From NCBI RefSeq assembly GCF_004135205.1, contig NZ_CP035490.1, positions 4,941,644-5,005,643 of the forward strand: a DNA stretch of 64,000 bases, in the 5' to 3' direction. This stretch comes from Hahella sp. KA22 (lineage in GTDB: Bacteria; Pseudomonadota; Gammaproteobacteria; Pseudomonadales; Oleiphilaceae). Shown here in pieces: positions 6,070 through 35,651 of this stretch. Each line of letters starts with the position of its first letter. Position 1 is the first letter of the stretch. Position numbers and translations under genes: made by a program. The notes under the pieces were generated by a model. It was not told where the DNA came from, made no database searches, and saw nothing but the letters and a program-made list of their open reading frames with translations.

Positions 6070-6510
6070 TCAGGATGCGACGGGGCTTTCCTGAATCCTT
6101 ACAGCAGCGCCGTTATGTCCTCTTTTGACGCTTGGCCCGGAGGGCTTGCGGAAAGCGTGACGGATACGATCCAACTCCGACACCAACAACGTGCGCTCAA
6201 ACTCGGTTGTGCGATCGTAGAGATCCAACCAGGCCTGCTTCTCAGGCGGCAATTGATAGACAGGTCCATCTTCTTCCATACGTACGCGATACATGGGGCC
6301 ATCGCCTGTACGCAGCCATTCGAAGTTGCCGTCCCATTTGTCAGCAATGGTAATCAGGTAATCCGCTCCCACCTGATAAATATCCCCGTTAAACCATTGG
6401 CGCACGGTTTCGTAACGCACGTTACAGGCGACGGAGATTTCCCGTTTAATTTTCCGGGGATGCACTCCCCGATCCAGTAGTAGTCTTTCGATTCTTTTTG
6501 TAACACTCAT
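6070..6510 (-). CDS. Short CI-like phage-type repressor, copy 1
   Basis: A 146-residue DNA-binding protein. The N-terminal 75 residues form a CI-type helix-turn-helix (VRYETVRQWFNG as the recognition region) ending in the ADKWDGNFEWLRTGDGPM block seen in lambdoid repressors. The rest is a short helical tail; there is no S24/LexA-like self-cleaving domain, so RecA-driven cleavage is not expected. It is about two thirds identical over the N-terminal domain to the neighbour at 6858-7280. The ATG at 6510 is preferred over an in-frame TTG at 6516. No ribosome site precedes it, which fits a leaderless mRNA like that of lambda cI from PRM. It faces its own operator-like region to the right. Confidence 0.75.
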   Translation of the reverse strand: MSVTKRIERLLLDRGVHPRKIKREISVACNVRYETVRQWFNGDIYQVGADYLITIADKWDGNFEWLRTGDGPMYRVRMEEDGPVYQLPPEKQAWLDLYDRTTEFERTLLVSELDRIRHAFRKPSGPSVKRGHNGAAVRIQESPVAS

Positions 6511-6570
6511 ATGCAAGCCAGCTTTGTTAAGATTTGTAAATTGTATCTCGCATTAATACAAGCTTGCATG
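6510..6570 (-). promoter_or_regulatory. Promoter/operator region of CI-like copy 1
   Basis: From the start codon outwards this stretch holds ATGCAAGC (6511-6518) and the inverted partner GCTTGCAT (6562-6569). A -10-like TACAAT read on the minus strand lies at 6545-6540. The 17-18 nt next to the start (ATATGCAAGCCAGCTTTGT) are repeated exactly before copy 2, so the element was duplicated with the gene or is kept for regulation. Confidence 0.5.
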
Positions 6571-6857: not shown

Positions 6858-7280
6858 TCAGCTTTTAACTTTTTCTTCCTTTTTTGAGAAAGAGGCCGGC
6901 TCCAACCCTTCATATGGATTTTGAATAGACTTACGGAACCTTTTCAACTCATTGAGCATATAGGCGCGCTCAACGTCAGACGTGTTATCGAACAATTCCA
7001 ACCATGCCCTTTTTTCCTCGGGCAGATAAGAAGCGGCCTCTTCACTGATCTTGGGCTTTTCCATTGAGCCCTTGCCGGTGTAGAGCCAATCGAAGTTGGC
7101 GTCCCATTTGTCAGCAATAATCAAAAGGTAATTCGCGCCTACTTCAGCAATCGTGCCGTTAAACCACTGACGTACAGTTTCATAACGGACTCCGCAAGCG
7201 TTAGAGATCTTCCGCTTTACCTGACGGCGATGAACGCCCCTTTCGAGTAGTAGTTGTTCGATTCTTTCGGTTACAGACAT
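6858..7280 (-). CDS. Short CI-like phage-type repressor, copy 2
   Basis: A 140-residue paralogue of the gene at 6070-6510 with the same N-terminal helix-turn-helix (VRYETVRQWFNG) and the same ADKWDANFDWLYTGKG ending. It also lacks an autocleavage domain, and it ends in a lysine-rich tail. The ATG at 7280 is chosen over an in-frame TTG at 7286; again no ribosome site is visible, so a leaderless transcript is possible. It is divergent from the Cro-like gene at 7389, the classic arrangement of a lambdoid immunity switch. The two proteins could form mixed dimers. Confidence 0.78.
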   Translation of the reverse strand: MSVTERIEQLLLERGVHRRQVKRKISNACGVRYETVRQWFNGTIAEVGANYLLIIADKWDANFDWLYTGKGSMEKPKISEEAASYLPEEKRAWLELFDNTSDVERAYMLNELKRFRKSIQNPYEGLEPASFSKKEEKVKS

Positions 7281-7388
7281 ATGCAAGCCAGCTTTGTAGT
7301 TTGCCGCATTGTAACCCGCCTTGCTACAAATATGCTTGCTTTATTTAAGCAATTATGCTTGTATAACGCGCGATGTAAGGAGGCAGCT
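7281..7388. promoter_or_regulatory. Divergent CI/Cro-type operator region
   Basis: This 108-nt region separates the CI-like and Cro-like genes. Two 12-bp direct repeats, CAAATATGCTTG (7327-7338) and CAATTATGCTTG (7350-7361), differ at one base and lie 23 bp apart centre to centre, about the spacing of lambda operators. A further ATGCAAGC abuts the CI-like start. An extended -10 (TGTATAAC, 7360-7367) points towards the cro-like gene, and a TACAAT on the other strand (7313-7308) points towards the repressor. Confidence 0.55.
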
Positions 7389-7916: not shown

Positions 7917-7956
7917 ACCCAGATTTATCGACCTGAGTCATCGACAGATATTTTAA

Positions 7957-7985
7957 AAGAAGGTGAGCGTTGCGCTCACCTTCTT
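7957..7985. terminator. Bidirectional terminator
   Basis: A perfect 13-bp stem AAGAAGGTGAGCG / CGCTCACCTTCTT with a TTG loop lies between the small membrane protein gene and the convergent protease gene. Short T and A runs flank it on either side. Confidence 0.85.
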
Positions 7986-8000
7986 AACTTACGGCTGGCG

Positions 8001-10559
8001 TTATTTACGAGGAAATTTAAACCGCAGCCAACCCAGCGCCGCCAACATCAGCCAAACTGCGCCGCCACCGCCGGAATCGCCACTACCACCTGAGTCACTA
8101 CCACCTGAGTCACTACCACCTGAGTCACTACCACCTGAGTCGCTACCTCCTGAGTCGCTACCACCAGTCGGCTCTTCATCATCGTTCGCGATGACACCTG
8201 AGACCGTAGCCTGACTAATAGTTCCAGAAGAGGGATTGCTTATTGTCAGCGTGAAAGACTCATCCGTCTCAAATGTCGTATCGCCAGAGACGTTAATCAT
8301 AAACGTCTTACTGAATTGACCCGCAGCCAAACTCACTGATCCGGAAGGCATTGCGCCACCGAAGTCTGTCGCGTTGGCGGGATTAGCGCCCGCCCCTGCT
8401 ACGCTGTAATCCACTGTCATGTCAACAATCGCGTACTGACGGGAAACCTGGAAGGTAAAAGCAGTCTGCCCGCTATTTCCTTCAACTTGGTTCGCACTGA
8501 CCGCGCTGACGGAAATATTCCCCGAAGTATTCACAGAAACCAGAGAGAAGTTAGCAGGGGAAACGTCAAAGAATACGTTGTCGCTGCACTTCACCCGAAT
8601 CCGCCCATTTGCGGTGTCCGTATTGGGGGCAACCACTCTCTCGAATCCATCATTGGACGCGCCGGCTTTAATCATCGTTGTGAACGTGGAGCCGCCGTCT
8701 TTCGATAATTCGATATCCACCTGACTGCAGCTGACTGGGGCCAGATTTGTGTTCGCTACGTTCCAAGTCACATCCACCTGCTGTCCGCCGGTATATGTCC
8801 CAGCGCCTGGAGCCGTTACTTTAAATGGGCCTGAGTCGCCATCAACCGTCAACCTGACGTCATCCTGGTTCACGCCGAAGTCGCCAGAGCGAACGGTAAC
8901 CCTGAAATTAAGATCACGGTCGGTCGTAGGCAGAGTTTCCCCTAGAGAGCTGCTTAGATCACCAGAAAGAATTGCATCCAATTTGGGGAAATAACGCGTA
9001 GATGAAGTCGTTCCTTGAAAAGAACGGAACAAAGGACGCTTTCCATCATCAGTGGCCATTTCAACCGCATCAGAGGTTCCACCGCTATCACTTCTGTCCT
9101 GCTGCTCCCACGTATAGGTTAGTCCAGATAAATCGCCGGGATCAGTATCATTAGCCGTCGCCGTGAGCATGAAAGGCGTCCGGGCGGGAATCGTGTAACT
9201 CGGACCTGCATTCACAGTAGGAACTGCATTCCCGGTATTTACCGGCGTTCCGCAGCTAGCCCCACTACCCGTAAGATGATTGTGGATTTGCTCCAGACTG
9301 CCCCCGTTAAAGTAGTCGTCGGCACTATTCTGTATATTTTGAGGAGAACACAATCCCGAGTATGACATTATCGTCGAACCAGACCCAACTTCCCATGCGC
9401 TGCTGGACGACCGGTTATCTTTACAACCGCCGCTTACCGCATTGAATGTATGCCCAGCCCCTAACTGATGACCTAATTCATGGGCTAATAAGTCGGTGAC
9501 AAAATACTCAAATCTACCATCAGGATTGCCTAGCCCAGTCCGCCCTTTAGCTTTGTAGCCACTGCTGTTGCAAAAGACGCCAACAAACGCCAGACCACCT
9601 CCAACCTGATTGAGCAAATGGCCAACATCGTAATTTTCGGAACCAATGACACTGTCTAGCGTCGCTTGATTCTCATTAAGCAGGATATCTGATCCATTAG
9701 TCGCCCTACCGCCTGTGTAAGGGTCAGTTGTTGAATTGGTATAAATTATTTTGTCGTTGTTCCCAACCAGTTGTAAGCGAACCGCGACTTCCTTTTCGTA
9801 AATCTGGTTCAGACGGTTAACGACAGAAACAATAAATGCCTGAGTTTCCGCTACAGAAGGATTGCTTGAGTCACTGCTAACAGAGGCTGAAAATTCACCG
9901 GTAGCGGCCATAGCCAGACGATATACCTTATAACTATCGCCAAAGCTTGCTCGTTCGGCCAGTACAGGCACCTCAAGAGATTTTAGATAACTGTATTCGT
10001 CACTCTCCGCAGCATGATCATGCTCCGCCGTTTCACACTGCAAAGGCTCTTTACTTGGCATGTCCGCTTTGAAAAAGCCGCGATATTGGCTGACGCTCTC
10101 TGTGTCGCTGAAGCTGGATTCCGGTTCAATGACCAGAGTGGCTTCCGGAGTATTAACATAACCGTGGAATCCACGAGGCGTTGTGTCGATACGTCCGCTG
10201 ACGCCTTTATCCTCAACGCCAAATACCTTGTAGGTGCGCAGCTCCGGATACTTGGCCTCTAACTCTGGAGCCATGACAGGCGAGTAAAACGCCTCCAGCA
10301 AAATAAAGCCGCCATCAGGTTTAGGGTAGTAAAACGGCAATCCTTCTAACGCGCCTTCAAGGGGGGCGTCTTGCAGATAGACTTTAAGGCGCTCAATGTC
10401 CGCCGCGATTCCGCGATAGTGAAACGCCGACTCAGTCTGCGCCTGCGCCTTGCCCGCCATGTCCAACCACAATCCATCGGGGGATTGGGCATGAGAGACA
10501 CTGGCGATAGCCAGCGCTAACTGCGACGCCACAAAAAATGCTGCTTTATTCATGCTCAT
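8001..10559 (-). CDS. Secreted reprolysin-like zinc metalloprotease with Calx-beta and GlyGly-CTERM tail
   Basis: A protease of about 852 residues, probably exported by Sec and then type II secretion. In order it has a signal peptide (1-25), a propeptide (about 30-190), and a metzincin catalytic domain with HELGHQLGAGH (about 360-371) and the Met-turn IMSY (about 397-400). After these come Ig/PKD-like beta domains (about 445-680), a Calx-beta domain (about 685-795), a Gly-Gly-Ser-Asp-Ser repeat linker (about 800-825), and a C-terminal GGGG plus hydrophobic stretch plus basic end. That tail is the GlyGly-CTERM signal cut by rhombosortase. The ATG at 10559 is preferred over TTG at 10562. The gene just upstream encodes a stand-alone copy of the propeptide. 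Confidence 0.88.
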   Translation of the reverse strand: MSMNKAAFFVASQLALAIASVSHAQSPDGLWLDMAGKAQAQTESAFHYRGIAADIERLKVYLQDAPLEGALEGLPFYYPKPDGGFILLEAFYSPVMAPELEAKYPELRTYKVFGVEDKGVSGRIDTTPRGFHGYVNTPEATLVIEPESSFSDTESVSQYRGFFKADMPSKEPLQCETAEHDHAAESDEYSYLKSLEVPVLAERASFGDSYKVYRLAMAATGEFSASVSSDSSNPSVAETQAFIVSVVNRLNQIYEKEVAVRLQLVGNNDKIIYTNSTTDPYTGGRATNGSDILLNENQATLDSVIGSENYDVGHLLNQVGGGLAFVGVFCNSSGYKAKGRTGLGNPDGRFEYFVTDLLAHELGHQLGAGHTFNAVSGGCKDNRSSSSAWEVGSGSTIMSYSGLCSPQNIQNSADDYFNGGSLEQIHNHLTGSGASCGTPVNTGNAVPTVNAGPSYTIPARTPFMLTATANDTDPGDLSGLTYTWEQQDRSDSGGTSDAVEMATDDGKRPLFRSFQGTTSSTRYFPKLDAILSGDLSSSLGETLPTTDRDLNFRVTVRSGDFGVNQDDVRLTVDGDSGPFKVTAPGAGTYTGGQQVDVTWNVANTNLAPVSCSQVDIELSKDGGSTFTTMIKAGASNDGFERVVAPNTDTANGRIRVKCSDNVFFDVSPANFSLVSVNTSGNISVSAVSANQVEGNSGQTAFTFQVSRQYAIVDMTVDYSVAGAGANPANATDFGGAMPSGSVSLAAGQFSKTFMINVSGDTTFETDESFTLTISNPSSGTISQATVSGVIANDDEEPTGGSDSGGSDSGGSDSGGSDSGGSDSGGSGDSGGGGAVWLMLAALGWLRFKFPRK
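8086..8160. repeat. Five 15-bp tandem repeats inside the protease gene
   Basis: Five back-to-back copies of CCACCTGAGTCACTA. The first three are identical and the last two vary at one or two bases. They encode Gly-Gly-Ser-Asp-Ser units in the linker before the GlyGly-CTERM tail. The unit length keeps the frame, so copy-number changes would only alter linker length. Confidence 0.95.
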
Positions 10560-10631: not shown

Positions 10632-11267
10632 TTAAAACCAATTTTTTATGGATCGCCACATCCGTGAGAAGAACCCGGGGTTCGCCACTTCTTCATAGGG
10701 CTCGACGCTATTCCCGGCTTGATCCGGTACAAGCGCGCCTTGAGGCTCAACGGGTTTGGGGATATATGGCAGATCCTGTTTGAAGAAAACCCGGTAGCGA
10801 TCCTCCGACTTCCTATCGGAAAACCGGCTTTCGGGCTCTATCAATACACTACGGCCATCCATGGTGAGAAAAGCCTTGAAGCCTGCATCGGTATAATCGA
10901 TGCGGCCTGACAAGGTGGGGATATCCACGCCATGAACTTTGTAAGTTCGGATATTGGGGAACTTTTCAGCAAGCTCAGGGGCCATAACCGGCGAGTCATA
11001 CGCTTCAACCAAAACAAAGCGCTGATCCGGCATAGGCAAAGTCAAAGACAGCCCTTCCGCGGAGCCCTCTTGAGGGGCGGCTCTCAGGTATGCGCGCAGC
11101 TCCTCGCCTTTCAAGGCGACAGCAAAATACGGAAATTCTTGCGTTTTCTGCGGCTCCGCAACGGGTGACCAGAATGACATCTCAGCACTTGCGGCCTGGG
11201 ACATCAAAACGATTCCTCCAATCAAAGCAAACTGCTGCGCTGACTTTATGGACTTGCGTAACTGCAC
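10632..11267 (-). CDS. Stand-alone protease propeptide homologue, secreted
   Basis: A 211-residue protein with a signal peptide (1-28, SQAASA). The body is about half identical by eye over roughly 108 residues to the propeptide of the protease encoded directly downstream. Shared blocks include SPVMAPEL, RTYKV.GV, SGRID, IEPES.FSD and YR.FFK.D. It has no catalytic domain and ends with a short aromatic-basic tail. The likely start is GTG at 11267. With the same orientation and a 72-nt gap it is probably in one operon with the protease. A role as a trans-acting foldase or inhibitor of the protease is inferred, by analogy with other propeptides. Confidence 0.75.
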   Translation of the reverse strand: MQLRKSIKSAQQFALIGGIVLMSQAASAEMSFWSPVAEPQKTQEFPYFAVALKGEELRAYLRAAPQEGSAEGLSLTLPMPDQRFVLVEAYDSPVMAPELAEKFPNIRTYKVHGVDIPTLSGRIDYTDAGFKAFLTMDGRSVLIEPESRFSDRKSEDRYRVFFKQDLPYIPKPVEPQGALVPDQAGNSVEPYEEVANPGFFSRMWRSIKNWF

Positions 11268-29246: not shown

Positions 29247-29891
29247 ATGGCGAAGAAAACTCCATTAGGCGACAAACTGTATTTATTCACTGACGCCACC
29301 GGCATGATAGCGGAAAACCTGCTTATAACCTCCCATGGCGGCTATATTTCACGCCCGGATTTCGGCAAGCAGACAGGCTGGGCGCGCAATATCCCTGGTC
29401 TGGGAGGCTGGATCGGCGTGCCGGAATGGACTCAGCTTTATTTCTACGGCCCTCACACTCAATCATTGCTGGACCCCGGCCTGGGTTCCGTTATCAGCGG
29501 TAAAACCAAGTTTTTGCAACGTCTGGCGCCCAATACAAAAGTCAGAAATTATAGTCTGAGCAAATATCAGGGAGAAGAAACGGGAGAGACCTACGAGAGC
29601 ATCGGTCGGGATATAGACAGCAACCGGACATTTATCACCTTGCGTCAGGACGCCTTGAACAGCGGCGACGAAAGAATGATGGCTGAAGCGCAACGTTTAT
29701 GCCCCAACCCATTCCCCAAATTCGATGTATTGACCGTCCGCAACCGCAAGCTGATGGGCGGAGTAGACCTCAAACACGCACTGGACATGCTCGCCAGCAA
29801 TGGTTATCGCTACAACAACATTCACTGCGTATTCTGTCGTTCAAGAATGATCGGCCCAAGCGGCAGCTGGGACGCCCGCAACAACCCTTGA
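29247..29891 (+). CDS. Uncharacterised accessory protein, SHGG-motif
   Basis: A 214-residue protein without signal peptide or membrane segment. Visible features are ENLLITSHGGYIS near residue 23, LYFYGPHTQSLLDPG near 63 and a late VDLKHALDML and FCRSRM. The SHGG plus FYGPH combination reminds me of the 'putative adhesin Stv' domain, but this is memory of a motif and not firm. AGGA precedes the ATG. It is the third gene of the AT-rich block and is convergent with the response regulator. Confidence 0.55.
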   Translation: MAKKTPLGDKLYLFTDATGMIAENLLITSHGGYISRPDFGKQTGWARNIPGLGGWIGVPEWTQLYFYGPHTQSLLDPGLGSVISGKTKFLQRLAPNTKVRNYSLSKYQGEETGETYESIGRDIDSNRTFITLRQDALNSGDERMMAEAQRLCPNPFPKFDVLTVRNRKLMGGVDLKHALDMLASNGYRYNNIHCVFCRSRMIGPSGSWDARNNP

Positions 29892-31545: not shown

Positions 31546-32103
31546 TTAAGACAGCAGATAGTGGCGTATCAGCGCCGCGTGAGACAGAGGCTTGCGCGGA
31601 TCGTCGACATCCGTATTAGTCTCGTAATCCAATAGAACCAGCCCCATTTGCTGAGCAAGCAGATCTGAAAGTTGGTTCAACTCTGCCTGCAACCTGTGCG
31701 TCAGCGTCCATTGATACGCTGGCAGATAGATCCGCTTTCTCGCCTCAATATAAGGAATCAATTCTCCAGTGGGTCCTTTACGGTGACCCAACACACGCCC
31801 GTAACGCCTGACGGTGCGCTTGATTCCTTTCATGTCTGTGATGTCAAAGCGAGAAGGATCAACATCCTGTCCTTCGAACACCTTCAAGCCCTGCCAGATT
31901 CCCTCTACGGATTGGGCGGTCGAAGATGAGAACGGAATCGGAATACCGCCATGGGGATAGAAAGGGGAAAACTTCACCCAAGGCTCAGAGGCTTTTGAGG
32001 TAACGTCGACAATCGCGTAACCCGGATATTCCTTTTCCAGGGTTTGTCGCTTTTTTCTTCTGCTGGCGATCACTATCGCGCCGGTAGTTGTCTCTGCTTG
32101 CAT
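31546..32103 (-). CDS. Uncharacterised conserved protein, last gene of the RNA-ligase operon
   Basis: A 185-residue soluble protein with the striking block VKFSPFYPHGGIPIPFS followed by SVEGIWQGLKVFE (about 42-75), then RKGPTGELIPYIEARKRIYLPAYQWTL. I believe this matches an uncharacterised family (DUF6939), from memory only. The regular, charged and aromatic composition suggests an enzyme or nucleotide-binding protein. AGAGGCG lies before the ATG. It is 43 nt downstream of the DUF4166 gene on the same strand and closes the five-gene set. Confidence 0.65.
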   Translation of the reverse strand: MQAETTTGAIVIASRRKKRQTLEKEYPGYAIVDVTSKASEPWVKFSPFYPHGGIPIPFSSSTAQSVEGIWQGLKVFEGQDVDPSRFDITDMKGIKRTVRRYGRVLGHRKGPTGELIPYIEARKRIYLPAYQWTLTHRLQAELNQLSDLLAQQMGLVLLDYETNTDVDDPRKPLSHAALIRHYLLS

Positions 32104-32146
32104 AACGCCTCTTGGGGTTGCGTCGTATTTCTCTGGTTTGTGTGCG

Positions 32147-32689
32147 TCAGCCCGGCCGCAGGTTTCCAGAATAGCTCATTAGTTTTCCCAACACGGGAAG
32201 GCTGAGGGTGACGGCAAAGCGATACTGGTCGCCCACGACGGATTTATAGGCGTCCGTTCGTGGAACCAGCCATAAAGGCAAAGAGACTCCACGCAATTTG
32301 CATCGTTGCGGAACCCAGCGCCAGCCGCCATCGCGGATATCCACGCCCAAATGCAGCTCCACGCCGCCGGTGGTTTCACTCCAGTAACCATCAGGAAACG
32401 CGCCGTGGGGGCGAAACAGGGAGCGCATCTGAGCGCCGGTCTCAAAGGTGCGGTTCCATTGCAACGCGTCGCCAGAGTGGCGGATTTCAACACAAAAACC
32501 GACCATTCCTGTCGTCTGCGGCGCACCGGTCTTCGCGGCGATACGACGTCCGAGCCAACCCGCCAGTCCCGGCCCGTATTCAATCTGCACGCGTCCGGTC
32601 AGCGTTCCGCCCTCGCGATGCAGTTGCTGCAGCATCGGGTGCAGACGCGAGAAAGCATCACCGAACCATTGCGTCACGGCATTTTCCAT
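32147..32689 (-). CDS. DUF4166 domain protein
   Basis: A 180-residue cytoplasmic protein of the DUF4166 type. Markers are FSRLHPMLQQLHREGGTLTGRVQIEYGPG near the start, QWNRTF in the middle, and the closing LPLWLVPRTDAYKSVVGDQYRFAVTLSLP. In other bacteria DUF4166 often follows saccharopine-dehydrogenase-like or NAD-binding proteins and has no known function. Here it begins 5 nt after the DUF99 gene without its own ribosome site, so its translation is coupled to the upstream gene. Confidence 0.75.
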   Translation of the reverse strand: MENAVTQWFGDAFSRLHPMLQQLHREGGTLTGRVQIEYGPGLAGWLGRRIAAKTGAPQTTGMVGFCVEIRHSGDALQWNRTFETGAQMRSLFRPHGAFPDGYWSETTGGVELHLGVDIRDGGWRWVPQRCKLRGVSLPLWLVPRTDAYKSVVGDQYRFAVTLSLPVLGKLMSYSGNLRPG

Positions 32690-32694
32690 TAAAG

Positions 32695-33282
32695 TCAGGC
32701 CCTCCGACCGCTTTCGCCGGTCATCACCGCCGAGCCAATAATATGCGCCAGCCTCAAAGCCTCTGGCACTCTGCCTTTCGTGGTCAGTCTCGCCAACGCT
32801 TTACTGGCGGTTTCCGGGTCGCAGCCCGCCACCTGATAGTGACAGAAATCATTATTGAAAATGGTTCCCGCTGCGCGAATCAGATCACGCCGCCGTTCAT
32901 AGTCGTCAAAGTTACGCAGCGCCTTATCAATCGCCGCCAGATCCGGGTGCTTGCGCATGACCGCGATGCAGGGACGCTGCACGCTTTCGCATAACCTGGG
33001 CAGGTCAATAACATTGAATCCGCCGATGGCCACGCCATCCGTCAGCACGACGCCGACCTGATCATAAAACTTGCTGCTCGTCAGCATGGCGATCAGGCAG
33101 TCCGTGGCGTCATCGCCATCTTTGGTCGCAGCGCCCCAGAGCATGCCTTCAAATTCGCCATCTGCGCAGATGATTCCCGCCACGTTGACTGGCGATCCCC
33201 GCCGCCGTGCAAAAGGCGCATCATCAAACCCCGCAACGCGAATACGACGATTGCCTTTCACCAATTGATCCAATGATTTCAT
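32695..33282 (-). CDS. DUF99 (endonuclease V-like) protein
   Basis: A 195-residue protein of DUF99, a family mostly archaeal and related in fold to endonuclease V and RNase H. The conserved acidic positions are visible: GFDDAPF (Asp20, Asp21), DGDDATD (55-61) and LTDGVAIGGFNVIDL (Asp82, the counterpart of the DGxG aspartate in endonuclease V), followed by RKHPDLAAI. It could therefore cut nucleic acid, perhaps at modified bases such as inosine in RNA. It lies 21 nt after the RNA-ligase fusion gene. Function in DUF99 is not established. Confidence 0.8.
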   Translation of the reverse strand: MKSLDQLVKGNRRIRVAGFDDAPFARRRGSPVNVAGIICADGEFEGMLWGAATKDGDDATDCLIAMLTSSKFYDQVGVVLTDGVAIGGFNVIDLPRLCESVQRPCIAVMRKHPDLAAIDKALRNFDDYERRRDLIRAAGTIFNNDFCHYQVAGCDPETASKALARLTTKGRVPEALRLAHIIGSAVMTGESGRRA

Positions 33283-33303
33283 TACGCCATTTCCAAACCG
33301 CAG

Positions 33304-34980
33304 TTAATCCGTCTCATCATTTTCAGTTTTACTTGCCGTATCCAGAACGCCGTCTTCAAAAAACACAGGCAAATATGGATGCCAATTCCATAGCGCGGGA
33401 CGTCCGCTGTTTTCTGGAAGATAGACCCCATCGGTTTTACCATGACGTACAAATTTACCCAAAAACAGCGCCTGCTCTTCCCGCTCCAGACGCCACACAG
33501 CGCCTTCCGGCGCATCCACGCTTCCGTGCGCGCCGTTCCCTAATAATCGCAGCGCCTCTTCAACGGAGCAGGGTTCGCCGACATGGAGTGTCTTGGCGGG
33601 AGTAAACCCAGCCTGCGTCACGCGTCGATAAAAGGCCGCATAGGGTATGCGTCGATTGTCCGCGGTAAAAATATCAAAGGGTACAAAAGGTTCATGCGCC
33701 AGCCGGTAACGGGTTCCATGCACGAGGGCCAACCACTCGCCGACCAATCTCTCTCCGGGCTCCAGCACATCAAGAAAACGGGCTTGATGCTCCTCCACCC
33801 ATTCCGCCCACAGTCTTCGCGCAGGATTGGGAGACTCATCCGCCAGATCGCCATCACGTCCCAACGCCAGAACCCGGTCATCCGTTCGCAACGCGGCCAC
33901 GCAGGAACCATCCAGCTTTTCCTGCACGATCACCACATCGTCAGGATAACGTTGTCGAGTGGTCAGCATATCCGCTTTGTTGGCGTCGATATGTTTATCC
34001 GCCAGCCCCGTGCGCGAACCGGGCAGATGAGGAATGGACGTATAGGCCTTGTACGGCAGCAGCTTGCGTTTCTGCTGCAGGGTGCGCAGCTTTTTGCGGG
34101 CGGCTTCCGAACCGTCTTCCTTCAGCAGCCTCACGCGATAGGTGATCACCTCAGACTGGGTCAGCAAGGTTCCATCATTCTGCAACGGCAATCTCGGGTT
34201 GAGATATGTTCGCAGCCAGTCCAACACCGACTCCATCGGTTCAATTTGCTGATGCGGATATTCCGCCATCAGATTGCGCCAGTTTCTGCGGGATTTTTTA
34301 CTACGGCCGAAATCACCGAACATCAGACGTCGGCAAATTTCCAACGGGTCCATCCTGCTGGCGAAGGCCTCCAGAATAGCGCGCCGCAACAGGTCCGCAT
34401 CTAATTCGTTGTAGCGGCAAAACAGATACAGGTCCCATAAGGTTTTCGACATCCAACCGCCGTTCATATGCTCAAACAGCCCATGCAGCTTCCAGGCGGC
34501 GGCGATTTCCACGGCGACAGTCGGAACAGCGTTCGTAACGCCTTCTTGCAGAACGGAAGGAATCGCTATAATCCGCGGAGGAACCACTAGCGGATCACCC
34601 ACAGCGATATCCACCTGCAAAATACCTTCAGAACCTGCAATCACATAATTAACGCTATATCGCACGCCCGGAGAGATGCTGTCCTGCCAAATGGGATGAA
34701 TCTGCAGTGTCTCTGGTTCAAAGCGGCAAGGCGAAGCGTCTGTCTGCGTCACGAGCTGACGCATCAACGTTGTGAAATAGTCAGGGGCGTAATCCCCCAA
34801 ATACAATAAATCCAGGTCTTTACAGGCTCGCGGCTGCGGCCCGCTCCAACAGCCTGAAACATAACTGCCTCGCACGACGAAGCGATCAGCCTGCGCCAGA
34901 CTGCGTAAACGCGACAACACCGTCTCAATAGCGATAAGAGTCCGCGCTTCGTCCGTAAGGGCCTTCGGCGTCTGCATCAT
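33304..34980 (-). CDS. AbiEii-type nucleotidyltransferase fused to an RNA ligase domain
   Basis: A 558-residue two-domain protein. The N-terminal half has a nucleotidyltransferase fold: RGSYVSGCW (37-45), metal-binding Asp55 and Asp57 in CKDLDLLYL, third Asp124 in LQVDIAVGD, then AAWKLHGLF...KTLWDLYLF as in AbiEii toxins. The C-terminal half has the ATP-dependent RNA ligase signature: motif I EKLDGS with the adenylated Lys355, motif III GEW (414-416), motif IV EGAVWR (492-497) and motif V LGKFVRHGK (Lys509). The start is ATG 34980, whose ATGA overlaps the stop of the preceding gene; an earlier frame start at 35010 is not needed. It may transfer nucleotides to, and seal, RNA ends. No substrate can be read. 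Confidence 0.85.
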   Translation of the reverse strand: MMQTPKALTDEARTLIAIETVLSRLRSLAQADRFVVRGSYVSGCWSGPQPRACKDLDLLYLGDYAPDYFTTLMRQLVTQTDASPCRFEPETLQIHPIWQDSISPGVRYSVNYVIAGSEGILQVDIAVGDPLVVPPRIIAIPSVLQEGVTNAVPTVAVEIAAAWKLHGLFEHMNGGWMSKTLWDLYLFCRYNELDADLLRRAILEAFASRMDPLEICRRLMFGDFGRSKKSRRNWRNLMAEYPHQQIEPMESVLDWLRTYLNPRLPLQNDGTLLTQSEVITYRVRLLKEDGSEAARKKLRTLQQKRKLLPYKAYTSIPHLPGSRTGLADKHIDANKADMLTTRQRYPDDVVIVQEKLDGSCVAALRTDDRVLALGRDGDLADESPNPARRLWAEWVEEHQARFLDVLEPGERLVGEWLALVHGTRYRLAHEPFVPFDIFTADNRRIPYAAFYRRVTQAGFTPAKTLHVGEPCSVEEALRLLGNGAHGSVDAPEGAVWRLEREEQALFLGKFVRHGKTDGVYLPENSGRPALWNWHPYLPVFFEDGVLDTASKTENDETD

Positions 34981-35651
34981 GAGCGTGTTCCTGCGCCGGC
35001 TCCATCCCACCCCGCATCAAGCCCGATATTGCTGTCATAGATATTGAACTCGCGGATGTCTTTCACAATCTCTACGCCATTGTCCGTTAAAAAAGTACGC
35101 AGAGCGCCCAGCACCTCCGCCGCCTTGCCCAGCCCTCCCCGTATACGCTGAGTGACGAACTGCTCCCTGTGCGCCTCATCGCGCCAAAACGCATTGGAGG
35201 AAAGACGTCCACGATACTCCCGCACCGTCTCACGCAAGGCGCTCAGGTCATAATCCGCCGGTAATCTAAGCTTTAGATGATGTTCGAAGTAACAATAATC
35301 GGGCAACTGCGTCGCCGCTTCGTCATGCTGGGGAATATTGGCGTTGCTTATCGCCGCCTCAATTTTCAGGCGTTCGACAGTAAATCCCTCGCTCAGCATC
35401 CCGTCGCATATTTCCTGAATTTGCTCCCACACCCGCTCCGGCGCGCCGTTCAAACGCTTGCACAGCATGGGTTGGGTGCAATGCTCACCAGAGGACAGCT
35501 GAATAACAATAGCTTTCGCCTCTTTCGCCGCGCAAAAGTCGACAAAACGCTGCAGCGCGACTTGATCGCGAGCGACGACGGTAATGTGAATTTCATACTT
35601 TCCAGGAAACGCCTTGAGCGCATCCAACGGCGTGTGGAACCGATACTTCAT
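34977..35651 (-). CDS. Uncharacterised protein, first gene of the RNA-ligase operon
   Basis: A 224-residue soluble protein I cannot assign. An early KYEIHITVV (18-26) and a later YFEHHLKLRL (121-130) recall the paired His motifs of 2H phosphoesterases (2'-5' RNA ligase-like enzymes), but the second lacks the usual Ser/Thr, so this is weak. Other features are QLSSGEHCTQPM and a long C-terminal helix-rich part ending in EFNIYDSNIGLDAGWD. The ATG at 35651 is chosen because the longer frame to 35855 runs into unlike sequence. The stop codon overlaps the start of the ligase fusion gene. Confidence 0.6.
   Translation of the reverse strand: MKYRFHTPLDALKAFPGKYEIHITVVARDQVALQRFVDFCAAKEAKAIVIQLSSGEHCTQPMLCKRLNGAPERVWEQIQEICDGMLSEGFTVERLKIEAAISNANIPQHDEAATQLPDYCYFEHHLKLRLPADYDLSALRETVREYRGRLSSNAFWRDEAHREQFVTQRIRGGLGKAAEVLGALRTFLTDNGVEIVKDIREFNIYDSNIGLDAGWDGAGAGTRS

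What the first reader, a model, noticed from the sequence alone, without database searches (positions are those of the whole stretch)
31546..35651. Five-gene operon around the RNA ligase: possible undescribed RNA repair or defence system
Five minus-strand genes are packed with an ATGA overlap and gaps of 21, 5 and 43 nt. In order they are: an unknown protein with an HxT motif, the nucleotidyltransferase-ligase fusion, a DUF99 (endonuclease-V-like) protein, a DUF4166 protein, and a protein perhaps of DUF6939. A cutter-like fold, an end-modifying ligase and uncharacterised partners suggest an RNA cut-and-heal module. DUF99 is mainly archaeal, which hints at transfer. A GNAT gene lies just upstream.
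Basis: partly seen in the sequence, partly recalled or inferred. Interest (0 to 1): 0.85.

Follow-up and report, generated by a model that had tools for sequence, protein, structure and literature searches.

The report
NTase-RNA ligase operon with unknown partner
Three of the five flagged genes form a real, conserved bacterial operon joining a tRNA-toxin-like enzyme, an RNA-sealing enzyme, an undescribed partner and a DNA-nicking-type protein; it looks like an RNA-end repair or defence module, but its function has not been tested.

Summary
The five packed genes are real, but the conserved unit is three genes: A-B-C. A (34977-35651) belongs to a family without a Pfam model, predicted as two ferredoxin-like halves with invariant E/H/R/K residues. 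B (33304-34980) fuses an AbiEii-family nucleotidyltransferase to a PF09414 RNA ligase. C (32695-33282) is DUF99/Endo_dU. A, B and C occur in the same 4 of 7 Hahella genomes. They recur in the same order, with other neighbours, in a Thiotrichaceae MAG (47/45/53% identity). D (DUF4166) and E (DUF6939) are absent from that locus, and E is deleted in one Hahella. A deeper core exists: the 9 bacterial A loci found here all have A directly upstream of an AbiEii-type NTase, overlapping in 8; in a Deinococcus plasmid an unfused ligase sits divergently beside the pair. Two PADLOC models that match A are labelled 'AbiEi', yet A is not a winged-helix AbiEi. In 5 of 5 fused NTases, motif IV (KDxxD) reads KTLWD; 8 of 8 unfused ones keep KDxxD. 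Best guess: an RNA 3'-end heal-extend-seal module derived from an AbiE-like pair. The 'RNA cutter' role given to DUF99 is not supported: characterised members cut dU-DNA, not RNA. Function is inferred throughout.

The parts
34977..35651 (-). Gene A, 224 aa: undescribed family; predicted tandem ferredoxin-like alpha/beta protein with near-invariant E20, H22, T24 and invariant R94, K96, E98, Y121-F122-E123, H125, S151, T167, R169, E201, D206, D212, W215
   Evidence: No Pfam/NCBIfam family; 26-row alignment; AF2 pLDDT 89.8; matches PADLOC models labelled AbiEi; A in the same 4 of 7 Hahella as B and C
33304..34980 (-). Gene B, 558 aa: AbiEii-family nucleotidyltransferase (residues about 20-250) fused to RNA ligase PF09414 (about 340-520)
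   Evidence: Pfam, PADLOC AbiEii 1.3e-53; G38-S39, D55-x-D57, D124, K164 and ligase K355-L-D-G, E415, E492-G, K509 invariant in 4 aligned fusions; motif IV K179-T-L-W-D183
32695..33282 (-). Gene C, 195 aa: DUF99 / Endonuclease dU family, in a separate subclade with the Thiotrichaceae and a Fischerella plasmid copy
   Evidence: Pfam PF01949 5e-56; tree clade 100/100 of 6 of 23 rows; H180 of the last conserved motif kept in 7 of 7 aligned
32147..32689 (-). Gene D, 180 aa: DUF4166; part of the cluster in Hahella only, not of the conserved core
   Evidence: Pfam 4e-29; present in the window and 3 of 3 other Hahella loci compared, absent at the Thiotrichaceae locus
31546..32103 (-). Gene E, 185 aa: DUF6939; part of the cluster in Hahella only and dispensable
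   Evidence: Pfam 2.3e-76; last 22 residues only remain in L021; absent at the Thiotrichaceae locus

Best explanation
A-B-C is a rare, conserved operon built on a translationally coupled pair, A plus an AbiEii-type nucleotidyltransferase, to which an RNA ligase was joined (by fusion in Hahella and Thiotrichaceae, as a divergent neighbour in Deinococcus). Most likely it repairs or reprocesses RNA 3' ends, probably of tRNA: A cleans the broken end (for example by opening a cyclic phosphate), the NTase adds missing nucleotide(s), and the ligase seals the 3'-OH to a 5'-phosphate. Shown here: gene identities, conserved order, co-occurrence, intact catalytic signatures of the ligase and of NTase motifs I-III, and loss of the first Asp of AbiEii motif IV in the fused form. 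Inferred: RNA as substrate, the healing role of A, the order of steps, and a non-toxic NTase. The role of C is not explained: it may handle a DNA side-branch, or may have changed substrate.
For: A-B-C in identical order in two distant gammaproteobacterial lineages with different flanks. A, full-length B and C in the same 4 of 7 Hahella genomes and in none of the other 3, of which G006 shows only weak ligase-part matches. Deinococcus plasmid: A (35% identity) overlaps the NTase, and an RNA ligase with 45% identity to B's ligase part lies divergently next to them. 9 of 9 bacterial A loci found have an AbiEii-type NTase directly downstream. Ligase and NTase signature residues invariant in 4 fusions. 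Fused NTases read KTLWD where 8 of 8 unfused ones keep KDxxD. In viral A loci a Pfam RNA ligase or RtcB was identified within 4 kb in 4 of 24 loci, only part of the neighbours being scanned.
Against: A shows no detectable similarity to 2H phosphoesterases (hhalign probability 0.2%; none in the 50 Foldseek rows shown for each of two models), so a healing role is only an analogy. Three lineages (G404, G784, Embleya) keep the A-NTase pair without a ligase gene matched nearby, so the ligase is not essential to the pair. 20 of 24 viral loci had no ligase identified nearby, and large phages are rich in ligases anyway (PMC7824862, passages). Characterised DUF99 proteins cut dU-DNA, not RNA. AbiEii relatives are known as toxins.
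Confidence: 0.4

Rival explanations
1. Variant AbiE-type toxin-antitoxin / abortive infection system: the NTase modifies tRNA to stop growth, A is the antitoxin (a non-winged-helix 'AbiEi'), and the ligase reverses or directs the damage.
For: B's NTase half is AbiEii by Pfam and PADLOC; A matches two PADLOC models labelled AbiEi (6e-51, 4e-42); antitoxin-first overlapping layout; AbiE is a bicistronic type IV TA giving phage resistance (PMC3985639, abstract and passages), and MenA antitoxins are of three independent families (PMC11375011, passages).
Against: A has no Pfam AbiEi hit and its predicted secondary structure shows no winged helix. Its invariant polar residues are kept in phage proteins, and no NTase of this kind was matched in the 33 viral stretches searched, which points to an enzyme of its own. 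The fused NTases lost the first Asp of motif IV; mutation of an Asp of that motif abolished AbiEii toxicity (whether it is the same Asp was not established). Genomic surroundings look chromosomal and housekeeping, not a defence island (judged by eye from gene prefixes).
Confidence: 0.3
2. A DNA-level excision-repair cassette: DUF99/Endo_dU nicks at deoxyuridine, the Pol-beta-superfamily NTase fills the gap, and the ligase seals.
For: DUF99 proteins nick 3' of dU in DNA and frequently sit beside uracil-DNA glycosylase in haloarchaea (PMC11585767, abstract, part of Results and passages); C keeps the His of the last conserved motif and co-occurs with A and B.
Against: The NTase half is AbiEii-like, a family whose MenT members act on tRNA (passages), and the ligase is of the RNA_ligase family PF09414. 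The Deinococcus, G404, G784 and Embleya A loci have no DUF99 matched nearby, and G404 has none genome-wide. 0 of 15 other gammaproteobacterial DUF99 loci has A or B in the stretch fetched.
Confidence: 0.15
3. C is a passenger: A-B is the functional unit and DUF99 only shares the transcript.
For: A-NTase-ligase without DUF99 in Deinococcus; a DUF99 clade-mate on a Fischerella plasmid without A or B within 6 kb.
Against: A-B-C adjacency kept between Hahella and Thiotrichaceae at 45-53% identity; C is the slowest evolving of the five genes (dN/dS 0.05) and its presence in Hahella matches A and B exactly.
Confidence: 0.15

Closest known systems
AbiE type IV toxin-antitoxin (AbiEi/AbiEii), and MenAT
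   Same: NTase half is AbiEii family with motifs I-III; small partner gene upstream and overlapping; partner matches PADLOC models labelled AbiEi.
   Different: Partner is not a winged-helix AbiEi; NTase is fused to an RNA ligase; first Asp of motif IV replaced by Thr in the fused form.
RlaP-type Pol-beta NTase + Rnl RNA repair (described in PMC7824862, passages; primary paper not held)
   Same: A Pol-beta-superfamily NTase paired with an RNA ligase, with end-healing partners proposed.
   Different: The NTase is AbiEii (PF08843), and no RlaP model was hit; NTase and ligase are one polypeptide; partner A is an unnamed family; DUF99 is present.
Endonuclease dU / DUF99 (PF01949)
   Same: Gene C is above the family cut-off.
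   Different: It sits with an NTase-ligase and not a uracil-DNA glycosylase, and forms a separate subclade from 15 other gammaproteobacterial and 2 Deinococcus DUF99 (no archaeal rows in that tree).
2H phosphoesterases (LigT-like)
   Same: Two conserved His residues at the start of two similar halves; one HxT motif.
   Different: No second HxS/T; no profile similarity; not in the fold-search rows shown.

Membership tests
AbiE (type IV TA) | NTase motifs I/II hG[G/S]x(9-15)DhD | tested here: met
   G38-S39, 15 residues, D55-L-D57 in B; kept in all five fusions compared; definition from passages of PMC3985639
AbiE (type IV TA) | NTase motif III (Lys amid hydrophobic residues) | tested here: met
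   W-K164-L in B, invariant in 4 aligned fusions
AbiE (type IV TA) | NTase motif IV +DxxD | tested here: not met
   KTLWD in 5 of 5 fused; KDxxD in 8 of 8 unfused NTases
[quoted passage not shown]
   A: no Pfam AbiEi hit at E<=1; AF2 model is two beta-alpha-beta-beta-alpha-beta units. PADLOC nevertheless labels models matching A 'AbiEi'
AbiE (type IV TA) | toxicity neutralised by partner; phage resistance | not testable with these tools
   needs experiment
RlaP-Rnl RNA repair | RlaP-family NTase (Pfam PF10127; accession and its presence in this Pfam copy recalled) | tested here: not met
   For the NTase half at E<=1 Pfam gave AbiEii 1.5e-18, Aminoglyc_resit 0.02 and Glyco_hydro_95_cat 0.17 only
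RlaP-Rnl RNA repair | RNA ligase of the covalent nucleotidyltransferase type with KxDG and later motifs (motif names recalled) | tested here: met
   PF09414 1.4e-15; K355-L-D-G, E415, E492-G, K509 invariant in 4 fusions
2H phosphoesterase | two HxS/T motifs and 2H profile similarity | tested here: not met
   First motif HIT present, second is H125-L-K; hhalign probability 0.2% against 9 2H proteins
Endonuclease dU (DUF99) | PF01949 above curated cut-off | tested here: met
   189.4 bits against 32.7
Endonuclease dU (DUF99) | cleaves DNA 3' of dU | not testable with these tools
   Conserved His (H180) kept; equivalence to the AfuEndo_dU His tested in PMC11585767 (section read) is inferred

The most novel reading that the evidence does not exclude
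A founds a new enzyme family that heals or edits RNA 3' ends, shared by bacteria, jumbo phages (often joined to a MazG-like N-terminus) and giant viruses. In bacteria it is coupled to an AbiEii-type NTase that has been turned from a tRNA toxin into a repair polymerase by fusion to an RNA ligase and loss of a motif IV Asp. That would be an undescribed heal-extend-seal pathway, with a DUF99 nuclease as its fourth activity.
Probability: 0.25. Interest if true: 0.85.

Novelty: new variant of a known kind. Interest (0 to 1): 0.6.

Why it matters
If the NTase-ligase fusion repairs RNA, it would link AbiE-type tRNA-modifying toxins to RNA repair and show how a toxin enzyme can become a repair enzyme. 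It would also give a first functional context to family A, which has no Pfam model yet occurs in bacteria, large phages and (by predicted fold) giant viruses, and a new context in which to test DUF99.

Tried and rejected
2H phosphoesterase membership of A: rejected on profile and on the fold-search rows shown (50 of 1326 and 50 of 1452 matches). CYTH/triphosphate-tunnel idea: considered from the alternating charged residues, no test made beyond the fold searches. Five-gene system: rejected because D and E do not travel. Recent transfer by composition: operon G+C 53-58% is like the rest of the window. Search for an empty site in Hahella lacking the operon: one search matches in G004 lay in conflicting orientation, and of three stretches fetched one held a 57% response-regulator match and two none of the eight query proteins, so no empty site was established. 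Promoter-like sites were at chance level and terminator-like sites little above it (3 against 3.9 expected, and 12 against 8.0 with sd 3.1). Rfam and tRNA scans of the window: none. Literature: searches returned no paper and one unrelated paper on AbiEii plus 'RNA ligase'; the library holds only open-licence papers, so this is not proof of absence.
Full report
WHAT IS THERE. Five minus-strand genes occupy 31546-35651 with an ATGA overlap and gaps of 21, 5 and 43 nt. Call them A to E in transcription order. Pfam gives B = AbiEii nucleotidyltransferase (residues 22-247) plus RNA_ligase PF09414 (349-506), C = Endo_dU/DUF99, D = DUF4166, E = DUF6939, and nothing for A. The window is one stretch of a 6.96-Mb single-contig genome.

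WHICH GENES BELONG TOGETHER. Full-length B was found in 4 of 7 same-genus genomes (own, G001, G002, G005) and in 0 of the 368 other genomes of the class sample at E<=1e-20. A is in the same 4 of 7 and C in the same 4 of 7. Of the three without, G006 has only weak matches to the ligase part. D is in all four Hahella loci. E is in three of four; in G001 only its last 22 residues remain. A Thiotrichaceae MAG (L031) carries A (47% identity), the B fusion (45%) and C (53%) in the same order, A and B overlapping by 13 nt and B-C 4 nt apart, followed by a rhodanese-like gene (name by eye) with no match to D or E. The conserved operon is therefore A-B-C. The fusion itself is known from these two lineages only.

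THE DEEPER CORE. A Deinococcus sp. QL22 plasmid (L015) has an A homologue (35% over 202 residues) overlapping by 4 nt an AbiEii NTase (32% to B's N-terminal part), and beside them, divergently, a standalone RNA ligase (45.5% to B's C-terminal part). Two further gammaproteobacteria, G404 (L034) and G784 (L066), and an Embleya plasmid (L028) have A followed by an AbiEii-type NTase (Pfam for G404 and G784; by similarity for Embleya) with no ligase matched in the stretch. G784 shows no match to the ligase part genome-wide at E<=1e-3, and G404 only a weak one on another contig. Counting four Hahella, the Thiotrichaceae MAG, Deinococcus, G404, G784 and Embleya, 9 of 9 bacterial A loci found have the NTase directly downstream. 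In 8 of 9 the frames overlap: by 4 nt in six (in G005/L020 from the start at 10899), 13 nt in the MAG and 1 nt in G404. In Embleya the A frame is broken over two frames and the junction is unclear. A is rare: 2 of 398 genomes of the phylum sample, 2 of 369 of the class sample and 2 of 150 of G404's order (the first two counts are the own genome and G404, the third G404 and G784).

WHAT A IS. Pfam and NCBIfam gave no family for A; hits among 26 family members are singletons, the best 0.0011, one of them LigT at 0.019. PHROGs matches are weak to moderate: phrog_25995, unknown, 4e-8; phrog_1247, labelled MazG-like, 4e-4. PADLOC has two models labelled AbiEi that match A over its length (6e-51 and 4e-42); I saw the labels only, not how they were assigned. 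tblastn found A in 20 phage records from the Deinococcus query and 16 from the Thiotrichaceae query, and one scan gave 27 viral contigs (two earlier single-protein scans gave one each and one scan none). In most of these A is the C-terminal part of a longer ORF of roughly 310 residues. The N-terminal part looks MazG-like by the PHROG label and by eye; Pfam did not confirm it in the two scanned. The fold library of viral proteins adds giant viruses (Fadolivirus, Klosneuvirus, Bodo saltans virus, Yasminevirus; E 2e-10 to 8e-10). Across 26 rows R94, K96, E98, Y121, F122, E123, H125, S151, T167, R169, E201, D206, D212 and W215 are invariant, and E20, H22 and T24 nearly so. AlphaFold2 gave confident models of the window protein (pLDDT 89.8) and of a phage relative (92.2): two beta-alpha-beta-beta-alpha-beta halves with E20-x-H22 and E123-x-H125 on the first strand of each. 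PDB matches shown are generic ferredoxin-like or pseudo-dimeric folds with TM about 0.25-0.38. Profile comparison with nine 2H phosphoesterases gave 0.2% probability. These nine came from 21 retrieved loci: a simple rule gave 11 ORFs, and two without the 2H motifs were dropped. So A looks like an enzyme, but its reaction is unknown.

WHAT B IS. The NTase half has the AbiEii motifs I-III. In motif IV the family pattern is +DxxD (PMC3985639, passages). All five fused proteins aligned read K-T-L-W-D; the eight unfused NTases aligned (Deinococcus QL22, G404, G784, Embleya and four plasmid genes beside annotated AbiEi genes) read K-D-x-x-D. In the enzyme studied there a motif IV Asp mutation abolished GTP binding and toxicity; I could not tell whether it is the same Asp. 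The ligase half keeps K355-L-D-G and the later acidic and lysine positions in the four fusions aligned (motif names recalled). It is most like standalone ligases of Deinococcus, Rhizobium and Flavobacterium phages. No RlaP model was hit.

WHAT C IS. C is a DUF99/Endo_dU protein. In a 23-row tree without archaeal rows it groups with the Thiotrichaceae and a Fischerella plasmid copy (100/100, long branch), apart from the 15 other gammaproteobacterial and two Deinococcus copies. None of those 15 loci has A or B in the stretch fetched, four of which were short because of contig ends; nor has the Fischerella plasmid within 6 kb or the two Deinococcus plasmids within 5 kb. DUF99 is over the cut-off in 16 of 274 gammaproteobacterial genomes, own included. 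AfuEndo_dU and HaloEndo_dU cut 3' of dU in DNA and did not cut RNA (PMC11585767: abstract, part of Results, passages).

MECHANISM. The most likely reading is RNA 3'-end healing (A), extension (NTase) and sealing (ligase), by analogy with the RlaP plus RNA ligase repair described for jumbo phages (PMC7824862, passages). The substrate is guessed to be tRNA because AbiEii-like MenT toxins act on tRNA acceptor ends (PMC11375011, passages). An AbiE-like toxin-antitoxin reading is almost as good: same layout, same NTase family, PADLOC label. A dU-repair cassette is a third possibility and is the only one that uses the known activity of DUF99. Support from phage neighbourhoods is weak: RNA ligase or RtcB genes were identified within 4 kb in 4 of 24 viral loci (L024, L026, L027, L053; two of the 24, L057 and L060, are near-duplicates). 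For this, 48 of 115 neighbour-cluster representatives were scanned in bulk and 20 of the 48 again singly. The three RNA_ligase hits of the bulk scan are L024, L026 and L053; one Thg1 hit was not assigned to a locus; the 67 other representatives were not scanned, so the count may be low.

LIMITS. The genome-collection scan for A used two degenerate patterns and found only two loci, so the census is incomplete. Presence of D and E in the three Hahella without the operon was not tested at protein level genome-wide. Coordinates of the predicted structures were not available for active-site measurements. No function was tested.

Noticed in passing
PADLOC models PDLC02277 and PDLC02279 against window 34977-35651: Two defence-database models labelled AbiEi match a family that is not the winged-helix AbiEi; AbiE calls based on them may be mislabelled.
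   Followed up: partly
L036-L062 and L023-L027 (phages and viral contigs): Family A is found in many large phages, mostly as the C-terminal part of a protein with a MazG-like N-terminus, and has fold matches in giant viruses; no function is known.
   Followed up: partly
window 6070-6516 and 6858-7286, minus strand: Two tandem paralogous proteins, 59% identical over 125 residues, with a repressor-like N-terminus (by eye).
   Followed up: no
G000:C1:471646-472062 (own genome, outside the window): A second, weakly similar RNA ligase ORF of 292 aa; similar ORFs in G001, G002 and G005.
   Followed up: no
L021 (G001), about 7930-8110: DUF6939 gene E deleted to a 22-codon remnant and the stop codon of D lost.
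   Followed up: partly
L015:2374-4421: Beside the Deinococcus A-NTase pair lie a DUF6915 gene and a large leucine-rich-repeat-variant/HEAT protein.
   Followed up: no
L124:10-5537 (Deinococcus radiodurans plasmid): A DUF99 gene sits 62 bases after a large DUF4132 gene.
   Followed up: no
L122:6001-6588 (Fischerella plasmid): Closest DUF99 relative outside the A-B-C loci lies on a cyanobacterial plasmid next to a small weakly HTH-like gene.
   Followed up: partly
window 29247-29891, plus strand: Protein with a putative Stv adhesin domain (PF21527, 1.6e-22).
   Followed up: no
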